Of a DNA stretch of 64,000 nt, positions 9,531-12,228 are shown piece by piece; position 1 is the stretch's first letter, and every line of letters begins with the position of its first letter. Origin of the DNA: Lachnospiraceae bacterium. Its GTDB lineage: Bacteria > Bacillota > Clostridia > Lachnospirales > Lachnospiraceae. Position numbers and translations under genes: made by a program. The notes under the pieces are model-generated. The model did not search any database, was not told the DNA's origin, and was given only the letters and a program-made list of their open reading frames with translations. The stretch lies in contig JAILRH010000083.1 of NCBI GenBank assembly GCA_024698345.1, positions 27,430 to 91,429 of the forward strand. Reading direction: 5' to 3'.

Positions 9531-10865
9531 TTACACATTTACTTTTTTCAAACTCAATTCGACAATAATTGCAAACTCATTATCTTTTACTTCTGTCTTA
9601 AATACTCCGTCATACTTATCCGCAACTTTCTTTATATTCTTTGTTCCGATACCGTGAGATTTTTTATCTTCTTTAGTAGTTTCAAGTTTCTGTGCGCTCT
9701 CAACCTGTGACTTGTCAATTGAATTGTGTTCTTCAATCCTGAGATATTTTTTACCTACGATAAAATTCAGTTTTATATATTTCGCACTCTCATCTGCCTG
9801 ACTGTTAACAGCCTCAACAGCATTCTTCAAAATATTTGAAATAACCACAACCAAATCATAATCTTCGATACTCAGATTCTCCTTTAAATTACCTGTAACG
9901 CTTACTTTGACATCTTCTTTTTTATTTGCGAGTATATTAGTTAACATTACATCGGCAATCCTGTTTCCTGTATGGAAAAGCTGCTTTCTGTTCCTATTCA
10001 GTTCTTCCGTCATCGTCGAGAGATACCTCTTACACTGTTCCACATCTCCGTTATCAAGATAATTTTCCAGGCACATAATATGATTGAGAACGTCATGTCT
10101 AAATCTTCTTGTATCCTCTTCATTCTTCAACACAAGTTCATAATAACTCTTTTGTTGCTCATTATATTTCTGAAGGATTCCGTTTTCATTTTCCAAAGAC
10201 ATTCTTGAAACTTCCAACATTATACCCTCTGCAGAAATAATAAATATACCGATACAGATTATTACAGCTACCGCAGTAATAATCTGATTAAGATTATGCA
10301 CTCCCTTGCCGTTTACAAAGACAACAATACCTACAATCAAAAACATCAGCATAAACAGAAGTATAGCCACTTCTATCAGTAGTTTCTTTGGTAGTTCCGA
10401 AAAATTAATATTGAACTTGAATCCTCTGATTGCTATAACTCCGCAACATATTATAACAATAAACGCTATAACTTTTTTGAAGATAAACATGTCCGCAATT
10501 CCCGGAACCAGCAAAATAACGAAGCCCTCAACCACACCTGCGATAATCTGACTTCCAATAAAAGATACAAAATATTCCTTTGCAGACAATTCACAGCAAA
10601 TTGCCAGCGCAACCATGTATACAACAATCTTTATTATTGCGGTCAGTCCCTCATTAGTTTTTATAAAGAGTAACTCTCTTATGTCCACAATCATCTGACC
10701 TGTATGGAAAGAAATGATAACTCCTCCAACGACCACAATCATTATAGCAACGATATTTCTCCATAGTGTCTTAGGCAGGAACTCTCTTTCTATCATACAC
10801 ATCAATACCAGTGCTGACATAAAATCTAACAATAATCCCAGTGTATCAACCATAGACCTCACCAT
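9531..10865 (-). CDS. AgrC-like GHKL sensor histidine kinase
   Basis: N-terminal multi-TM, RRFRHDVLNHIMCLENYLDNG (H-box), GHKL C-terminus SHGIGTKNIKKVADKYDGVF. Confidence 0.9.
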   Translation of the reverse strand: MVRSMVDTLGLLLDFMSALVLMCMIEREFLPKTLWRNIVAIMIVVVGGVIISFHTGQMIVDIRELLFIKTNEGLTAIIKIVVYMVALAICCELSAKEYFVSFIGSQIIAGVVEGFVILLVPGIADMFIFKKVIAFIVIICCGVIAIRGFKFNINFSELPKKLLIEVAILLFMLMFLIVGIVVFVNGKGVHNLNQIITAVAVIICIGIFIISAEGIMLEVSRMSLENENGILQKYNEQQKSYYELVLKNEEDTRRFRHDVLNHIMCLENYLDNGDVEQCKRYLSTMTEELNRNRKQLFHTGNRIADVMLTNILANKKEDVKVSVTGNLKENLSIEDYDLVVVISNILKNAVEAVNSQADESAKYIKLNFIVGKKYLRIEEHNSIDKSQVESAQKLETTKEDKKSHGIGTKNIKKVADKYDGVFKTEVKDNEFAIIVELSLKKVNV

Positions 10866-11568
10866 ACATCAGGTCAAATTCTCTGACCTTGTCTTTAAAC
10901 TCATTTTTCTTTCTTCTGGAAACAGGGATAACCTCCCCGTTATCAAGATAAGCTCCTTTGTCATTTATATCATCAATAAATCTCACATTAACTATATATC
11001 CCTTGTGACATCTAAAAAACATCTTGTCATTCAAAAGATTTTCCCACTCCTCCATGGAACTCTCACTTCTGAATTTCATGTCATTGGAATTAGTATATAT
11101 CACCGTATCCCCGCTTTCCTTACAGACATATCTGATTTCTCTTTGCGGAATCTGATATGGTGTACCATATGACTTAAGTTCGATAACTTCATAACCTATT
11201 CTGCTTCTGGTAAAAGTATCGAGTCCCTCTTTTATTTCATCAAAATCTACAGGCTTTGTCATATATCTGAAAGCATTCACTCTATACCCTTCTTTGATTC
11301 GCTCAACATGAGTAGTCATGATAATAATATTGCAATTCTCCCATTTTTTCTGAAGATTTGCTGCTACTTCAATACCATCAATAGTAGGCATTTCCAAATC
11401 GAGAAAATACAAATCCATTCTGTTCTCCTCATCTATAAGCTTATTACCATCTGAATACTCATATATTTCCCATTTTTCAGTATTACAATTATCCTCATGA
11501 TACATCTTAAGATTCTCTTTTATACTCTCTCTAAAATGTTTCTGATCATCACAAATTGCTATCTTCAT
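10846..11568 (-). CDS. LytTR (AgrA-like) response regulator
   Basis: REC MKIAICDD..YFLDLEMPTIDGIEVA plus LytTR domain (IRYVCKESGD..FFRCHKGYIVNVRFI..VSRRKKNEF). Start moved to MKIAICDD (11568), preceded by GGAG. Confidence 0.9.
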   Translation of the reverse strand: MKIAICDDQKHFRESIKENLKMYHEDNCNTEKWEIYEYSDGNKLIDEENRMDLYFLDLEMPTIDGIEVAANLQKKWENCNIIIMTTHVERIKEGYRVNAFRYMTKPVDFDEIKEGLDTFTRSRIGYEVIELKSYGTPYQIPQREIRYVCKESGDTVIYTNSNDMKFRSESSMEEWENLLNDKMFFRCHKGYIVNVRFIDDINDKGAYLDNGEVIPVSRRKKNEFKDKVREFDLMYGEVYG

Positions 11569-11696
11569 ATTAACTCCATAATTCCCATTCAATTTCTCCG
11601 TCATTTGATAACCCCCATACAAATATATTTTATACTTTCAAACAAAACCCACATCAAAAATACGGAGAAGCATAATTCGTACACGATATTTCTATT

Positions 11697-11726
11697 ATTA
11701 TACCACACCACACGAAAAAAGGACAA
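11697..11726 (-). promoter_or_regulatory. Putative promoter for the LytTR/GHKL operon
   Basis: Minus strand TTGTCC-18 bp-TATAAT; the -35 lies in the 3' arm of the terminator at 11715-11747. Confidence 0.5.
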
Positions 11727-11747
11727 GCACCAACACCTGCCCTTTTT
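11715..11747 (-). terminator. Rho-independent terminator after the 19-aa micro-ORF
   Basis: Minus strand AAAAAGGGCAGGTG...GCTTGTCCTTTTTT, stem with G.U wobbles and T-tract. Confidence 0.75.
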
Positions 11748-11773
11748 ACCTTTTTCGATTTTTCCTCATAATA

Positions 11774-11833
11774 CTACTTCTTTCCGTGTATAATGTAGTA
11801 AAGAAAATCAAGAACACTAAATGTAGAAAGCAT
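11774..11833 (-). CDS. 19-aa micropeptide MLSTFSVLDFLYYIIHGKK
   Basis: ATG..TAG, strong SD (AAGGAGGT, about 7 nt upstream); hand translated; followed directly by terminator. Confidence 0.55.
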   Translation of the reverse strand: MLSTFSVLDFLYYIIHGKK

Positions 11834-12159
11834 AAGCAATACCTCCTTATCATTCTTAAATAAATCCGTCCAAACCAACTAATACAAATGTATCAGAAGC
11901 CCCCTGCCAATACAATTGCCTATTTTTTCTACACCTATAAAAAATGAATACCCTCTTTAATTCAAATATCATCTTCTTATCTTGCTAGCGTTCCCCGCGC
12001 CTTATAGATTCGGCGCAGGAAATAAATAAGAATACAGTTTCTAATATACGGCTACCCCATGCCGTGATTAGAAGGTCAATACATATAGATATCTTCTCCA
12101 TATCTTTATGTTACTACAATTATATAATTATATTTTCCAAGCAATCAACCGTCTCCCCC

Positions 12160-12189
12160 ACAAACGGTATCATTTACCCCGTGAACGGT
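12160..12189 (-). promoter_or_regulatory. Pair of LytTR/VirR-box-like direct repeats
   Basis: Minus strand ACCGTTTGT and ACCGTTCAC, 21 bp apart start to start; fit the known LytTR half-site [TA][AC][CA]GTTN[AG][TG] (9/9 and 8/9), just upstream of a -35. Confidence 0.6.
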
Positions 12190-12228
12190 ATTAATTTCCC
12201 CTCGAATGACAACATATCCTTTCCAAAT

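What the first reader, a model, noticed from the sequence alone, without database searches (positions are those of the whole stretch)
11697..12189. LytTR-box-controlled RNA/micropeptide locus beside an AgrC/AgrA-like pair
Seen in sequence, minus strand: two 9-bp repeats ACCGTTCAC/ACCGTTTGT exactly 21 bp apart, then TTGATT-18-TATAAT, then about 280 nt with GC-rich hairpins, a strong SD and a 19-aa ORF (MLSTFSVLDFLYYIIHGKK), then a terminator whose 3' arm overlaps the promoter of the LytTR/GHKL operon. Established: LytTR regulators (AgrA, VirR) bind paired direct repeats about 21-22 bp apart just upstream of -35 and drive RNAs such as RNAIII and VR-RNA. Inference: this is an RNAIII/VR-RNA-like output and/or peptide-signal gene of the adjacent TCS. 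No agrB/agrD-like genes are visible, so it would be an unusual agr-like system. Nothing here is in the ORF track.
Basis: partly seen in the sequence, partly recalled or inferred. Interest (0 to 1): 0.8.

Follow-up and report, generated by a model that had tools for sequence, protein, structure and literature searches.

The report
LytTR-switched regulatory RNA, rumen bacterium
Next to a two-gene sensing system, a rumen-type gut bacterium and its two known sister species carry an almost unchanging ~400-base RNA gene with the on-switch such a system normally binds; it looks like an undescribed functional counterpart of the regulatory RNAs that Staphylococcus aureus and Clostridium switch on by chemical signalling.

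Summary
On the minus strand, ACCGTTCAC (12189-12181) and ACCGTTTGT (12168-12160) lie 21 bp apart, 11 bp before TTGATT-18-TATAAT. A ~400-nt structured RNA with a 19-codon ORF and a terminator follows. Both other held species of this Lachnospiraceae genus have the same layout beside the LytTR/GHKL pair. The first 101 nt of the RNA differ at one base, while fourfold sites of flanking genes are only about 44% identical. The paired box recurs at 3-5 promoters per genome, with none in reversed-pattern controls. Targets are a second conserved ~130-nt RNA, a third RNA in one species, and secreted proteins.

Best reading: a VirSR/RgaSR-like regulon whose direct outputs include regulatory RNAs. An orphan agrB plus agrD-like pair exists elsewhere in all three genomes, so the signal is more likely an AgrD peptide than the 19-mer. 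The 19-mer's start codon is buried in a conserved helix and its codons show no purifying selection. RNA A is complementary to the regulator's own mRNA leader. That feedback, and any peptide activity, are inferred.

The parts
12198..12210 (-). third, degenerate LytTR-box unit (GTCATTCGAGGGG), 21 bp upstream of the distal box; intact in both sister species
12181..12189 (-). distal LytTR box ACCGTTCAC
   Evidence: shared consensus at 3-5 promoters per genus genome
12160..12168 (-). proximal LytTR box ACCGTTTGT, ending 11 bp before the -35
12119..12148 (-). promoter of RNA A: TTGATT-18-TATAAT
   Evidence: kept in relatives
11715..12113 (-). RNA A, ~399 nt predicted transcript, no Rfam match
12082..12110 (-). 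hairpin 1 of RNA A with purine loop GGAGAAG; invariant but for one base in G002; complementary to the regulator's mRNA leader
12039..12073 (-). hairpin 2 (UUCUAAU/AUUAGAA and ACGGC/GCCGU) with loop AUGGGGUA
11994..12019 (-). hairpin 3 CCUGCGCC/GGCGC(G/A)GG, with a U-G to U-A change in G001
11915..11939 (-). conserved anti-start element that pairs with the ORF start
   Evidence: -20.8 to -22.9 kcal/mol, shuffled means -10 to -11
11774..11833 (-). 19-codon ORF MLSTFSVLDFLYYIIHGKK with SD at ~11842-11848; G001 MFSTFNVIDFLIGTLFGRK
11715..11747 (-). intrinsic terminator of RNA A (12-13-bp stem plus U-run), with a G-U to A-U change in relatives
11697..11726 (-). promoter of the LytTR/GHKL operon (TTGTCC-18-TATAAT, extended -10)
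11655..11670 (-). leader element CTTCTCCGTATTTTTG of the regulator mRNA; can pair with its own start region or with RNA A hairpin 1
10846..11604 (-). LytTR response regulator (inner ATG at 11568)
9531..10865 (-). AgrC-like GHKL histidine kinase, about 7 hydrophobic segments then HATPase_c_5

Best explanation
The locus is a regulatory-RNA gene (RNA A) that the adjacent LytTR response regulator switches on when its AgrC-like kinase is active. The phosphorylated regulator would bind the direct repeats on one face of the helix just upstream of the -35 and recruit RNA polymerase, as VirR and RgaR do. It belongs to a small regulon of 3-5 promoters whose products are RNAs (A and B in all three species, D in one) and secreted proteins. 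Shown here by sequence: repeats, spacing, promoter, conservation, predicted structure, terminator and recurrence. Inferred: that this regulator binds the repeats, that the RNAs are made, and that they act by base-pairing. The most specific inferred step is that hairpin 1 of RNA A pairs with the CUUCUCC element in the leader of the regulator's own mRNA, which is otherwise folded onto its start region, and so feeds back on the system. The signal is most plausibly the product of the orphan agrB/agrD-like locus. The 19-codon ORF is probably a conditional product of RNA A, held shut by the anti-start helix.
For: Repeat, promoter, RNA and terminator layout in all three species. One difference in the first 101 nt against ~44% fourfold-site identity between G000 and G001 (34/68, 19/50, 18/42). 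Paired-box pattern: 3-4 hits per genome, 0 in reversed controls; two more two-box promoters in G000. The gap from proximal box to -35 is 11 bp at all nine promoters that were found without asking for it. RNA B, ~131 nt, is conserved, with one terminator pair changed on both sides. In Ruminococcus, similar boxes lie beside related LytTR genes. The kinase's only PDB match is S. aureus AgrC. Hairpin 1 against the regulator leader is the best non-self complement among 4,264 window segments and in L041. Published RgaR sites on spoZ use G-51/G-72, 21 bp apart (PMC10602386); here the equivalent Gs lie at about -53/-74.
Against: No expression or binding data. Conservation could be tested only in three species, two of them close. 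Each genome has 5-9 LytTR genes, so another regulator could use the box. The leader pairing is weaker in G001 (-17.2; stronger non-target segments exist), and joint folding makes it optimal only in G002. RNA B's match to start regions of co-regulated genes is not clearly above background (ranks 2-5 of 46). No box lies near orphan agrBD, and a second kinase/LytTR pair is also in all three species.
Confidence: 0.7

Rival explanations
1. RNA A is mainly the mRNA of a small hydrophobic peptide (delta-haemolysin-like or type-I-toxin-like) whose long structured leader keeps translation off until the anti-start helix is opened.
For: SD, frame, length (19), hydrophobicity and C-terminal GKK/GRK are kept; the start codon is buried in a conserved long-range helix, as in many tightly controlled small-peptide mRNAs.
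Against: The most conserved part is the first ~100 nt, far from the ORF. All nine codon changes between G000 and G001 are replacements, giving no purifying signal. Hydrophobic moment is low (0.17-0.22). Only three sequences.
Confidence: 0.17
2. The 19-mer is the autoinducer sensed by the adjacent kinase.
For: It is encoded beside a polytopic AgrC-like kinase and its C-terminal half varies between species.
Against: An orphan agrB/agrD-like pair in all three species is a more ordinary source. The 19-mer has no Cys, no AgrB or ABC gene next to it, and a sequestered start.
Confidence: 0.05
3. RNA A is the leader/attenuator of the LytTR/GHKL operon, read through its terminator, rather than a trans-acting RNA.
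For: It lies directly upstream, co-directional, and its hairpin 1 is complementary to the operon leader.
Against: The operon has its own extended -10 promoter in all species, the terminator is kept, and RNAs B and D with the same box stand before unrelated genes.
Confidence: 0.08

Closest known systems
C. difficile RgaS-RgaR with the SpoZ small RNA (PMC10602386)
   Same: AgrC/VirS-like kinase plus LytTR-type (VirR-like) regulator; paired direct repeats 21 bp apart upstream of a small RNA; agrBD not beside the kinase gene.
   Different: Here kinase and regulator are together and the RNA is next to them; several RNAs are in the regulon; no box was found at agrBD, whereas RgaR activates agrB1D1; the RNAs have no Rfam match.
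C. perfringens VirS-VirR with VR-RNA, VirT, VirU (PMC2838878, PMC4963840)
   Same: Small direct regulon mixing regulatory RNAs and secreted proteins; paired boxes in fixed phase just before -35; agrBD unlinked; VR-RNA is 386 nt, RNA A ~399 nt.
   Different: Box is ACCGTTYRN plus a G-run; targets include a cellulose-binding-domain protein and no recognised toxin; organism is a rumen-type Lachnospiraceae.
S. aureus agr RNAIII
   Same: Structured RNA next to agrC/agrA-like genes, carrying a short hydrophobic-peptide ORF; LytTR control (own knowledge).
   Different: Co-directional rather than divergent, agrBD elsewhere, shorter RNA, no Rfam match, peptide of low amphipathicity.

Membership tests
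VirSR/RgaSR-type LytTR regulon | Response regulator with receiver plus LytTR domain and AgrC/VirS-like GHKL kinase | tested here: met
VirSR/RgaSR-type LytTR regulon | Paired direct repeats ~21 bp apart immediately upstream of -35 in fixed phase at several promoters | tested here: met
   (box spacing 19-22 bp; gap to -35 11 bp)
VirSR/RgaSR-type LytTR regulon | Direct targets include small regulatory RNAs | tested here: inconclusive
   conserved structured loci with promoters and terminators found, but no transcription or function tested
VirSR/RgaSR-type LytTR regulon | Regulator binds the boxes | not testable with these tools
   needs EMSA or footprint
agr quorum-sensing system | agrB and agrD present | tested here: met
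   orphan agrB (PF04647) with a 45-47-aa agrD-like ORF in all three genomes; the agrD call rests on position and motif, no HMM hit
agr quorum-sensing system | agrBDCA in one autoregulated operon | tested here: not met
   agrBD is elsewhere and has no box
agr quorum-sensing system | Kinase senses the AgrD peptide | not testable with these tools
   a second kinase/LytTR pair is also in all three species
known RNA families of Rfam, RNAIII included | Match to a known RNA covariance model | tested here: not met
   no Rfam match up to E=1 for RNA A, RNA B or RNA D

The most novel reading that the evidence does not exclude
A commensal rumen-type genus runs an agr/VirSR-type circuit whose main direct outputs are several new RNA families. 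One of them, encoded next to the sensor genes, pairs with the regulator's own mRNA leader to set the gain of the switch, and also carries a start-occluded micropeptide that is made only under a second condition.
Probability: 0.2. Interest if true: 0.75.

Novelty: new variant of a known kind. Interest (0 to 1): 0.55.

Why it matters
Regulatory RNAs driven by agr/VirSR-type systems are known mostly from pathogens. This would place the same logic in a rumen-type commensal, give RNA families absent from Rfam, and offer concrete RNA-mRNA pairings to test. It would also suggest that control of regulatory RNAs by LytTR regulators is a recurrent solution independent of virulence.

Tried and rejected
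Rfam for RNA A, B and D: nothing. BLASTn of RNA A in 397 family genomes: only the genus is convincing; the weak short hits were judged chance (L027 lies inside an ORF; none had a box like this one). BLASTn of RNA B: one 29-nt outside hit (L168), between what look like a sigma-54 activator gene and its target, not a homologue. The first family-wide box pattern was wrongly written (it missed the window site), so its 1/299 is not used. Regulator orthologues outside the genus: none at E<=1e-55 in 397 family genomes; the all-species scan gave only the two sisters. The single-box pattern also hit five places inside genes without a full G-run (L121, L125, L129, L130, L132), taken as chance; it demanded the 11-bp gap, so its two new sites are no evidence for that gap. 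RNA B antisense to start regions: no conserved trans target with full pairing and only suggestive ranks for co-regulated genes. LytTR box at orphan agrBD: none. The L004 box match lacks promoter context and is taken as chance. Two alignments with wrong ends (A1, A3) were replaced by A4.

Full report
What is there. The window lies in a 3.71-Mb draft genome whose genus has three held species; two sister records are unnamed Lachnospiraceae MAGs, one with a RUG name of the kind used for rumen genomes. On the minus strand, downstream of malQ, the order is: LytTR-type direct repeats, a sigma-70-type promoter, ~399 nt of structured sequence with a 19-codon ORF, a terminator, then the promoter, leader and genes of a LytTR regulator and an AgrC-like GHKL kinase. 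The spaced double ACCGTT has one match in the window, with 0.09 expected when up to one mismatch is allowed.

Conservation. The same arrangement stands in G002 and G001. G001 is a useful distance: fourfold-degenerate sites in malQ, the regulator and the kinase agree at 34/68, 19/50 and 18/42, near saturation, yet the first 101 nt of RNA A differ at one position. Other blocks are also unchanged, notably AAAGAGGGTATTCATTTTTTATAGGTGTAG. Changes inside the helices I checked keep pairing: hairpin 3 U-G to U-A and terminator G-U to A-U, anti-start helix G-U to A-U. With three sequences, two of them close, this is consistent with structure but does not prove it. The sisters have three good repeat units; spacing is 20-22 bp.

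A regulon. A paired-box pattern finds 3 sites in G000 and 4 each in G001 and G002 (overlapping pairs at RNA A count twice in the sisters), with none in reversed controls. All nine promoters found this way have 11 bp between the proximal ACCGTTYRN and TTGNNN. A pattern of one box plus that gap adds two promoters in G000, each with a second box upstream. Targets: RNA A (3/3 species); RNA B, ~131 nt, nearly identical in all three, before a gene for a Cys-cluster (YkgJ-like) protein and pfkA (3/3); a secreted protein with CBM2 domains (2/3; Pfam); RNA D, ~200 nt, before a gene with a response-regulator/GGDEF-like product (1/3); a secreted protein with SGHA and LAGCETARGG motifs typical of CHAT-type peptidases (1/3; motif reading only, no Pfam hit). 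One further site ends at a contig edge. In Ruminococcus, similar boxes next to related LytTR genes precede genes that read as CPBP-type membrane proteases (not tested by HMM), which supports the box as one used by this protein family.

Signal. AgrB exists elsewhere in the genomes. One agrB with a 45-47-aa agrD-like ORF (ending FSLCLFGEPEYKEE or similar) is in all three species with no kinase/LytTR pair beside it. The AgrD assignment rests on position, length, Cys and acidic tail; no HMM matched. Two kinase/LytTR pairs occur in all three species, so the partner is not settled. The unlinked layout resembles C. perfringens (PMC4963840). There is no box at agrBD, as in C. perfringens, where VirR does not activate agrBD (stated in PMC10602386), and unlike C. 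difficile.

The 19-codon ORF. It keeps SD, frame, length, hydrophobicity and a basic end, but all nine codon changes between G000 and G001 are replacements. Its start is paired with an upstream conserved element in all three species: -22.9, -22.2 and -20.8 kcal/mol against shuffled means of -11.0, -10.3 and -10.0. This helix can also explain why the ORF's first codons are conserved as nucleotides. A translated, tightly controlled peptide is possible; a secreted signal is unlikely.

A possible feedback. Hairpin 1 (UAAAGAUAUGGAGAAG) can pair with CUUCUCCGUAUUUUUG in the leader of the regulator mRNA: 16 contiguous pairs in G000, -20.6 (none of 300 shuffles reached it); -22.2 in G002; -17.2 in G001 (0.7% of shuffles). 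In the window the leader is the best non-self partner among 4,264 segments, likewise in L041, but not in L042. Alone, the leader element is predicted to pair with the GGAGA region just after the upstream start codon in all three species. Joint folding makes the RNA-RNA pairing optimal only in G002. I regard it as a testable lead, not a result. The direction (activation by opening the start region) is inferred.

Verdict. An unannotated RNA gene controlled by a LytTR box is very likely; that it works like VR-RNA, SpoZ or RNAIII is probable; that the 19-mer is a signal is unlikely. I found no report of this in the held papers, which do not cover most subscription journals.

Noticed in passing
L002:1501-1720 (+), L033, L037: RNA B: ~131-nt conserved candidate small RNA with a CU-rich unpaired linker (in form antisense to an SD-AUG region) and a terminator with a pair changed on both sides; no Rfam match.
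   Followed up: partly
L030:1268-1467 (-): RNA D in G001: LytTR-box-controlled ~200-nt structured sequence with G-rich hairpin loops before a response-regulator/GGDEF-like gene.
   Followed up: partly
L143, L142, L139: Orphan agrB plus agrD-like ORF in all three species; in G000 and G002 a response regulator with what reads as a SARP-like C-terminus follows downstream.
   Followed up: partly
L123:1608-2810 (+): Secreted protein with CHAT-like His/Cys motifs (SGHA, LAGCETARGG) but no Pfam or NCBIfam hit, under the same box.
   Followed up: partly
L044, L046, L047, L116 (minus strand): Ruminococcus: paired ACCGTTCA/GCCGTTCA boxes beside LytTR genes precede what read as CPBP-type membrane protease genes.
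   Followed up: partly
window 12160-12210 and all related sites: Each box unit in this genus carries a run of G right after ACCGTTYRN, absent from the Ruminococcus sites; its role is unknown.
   Followed up: no
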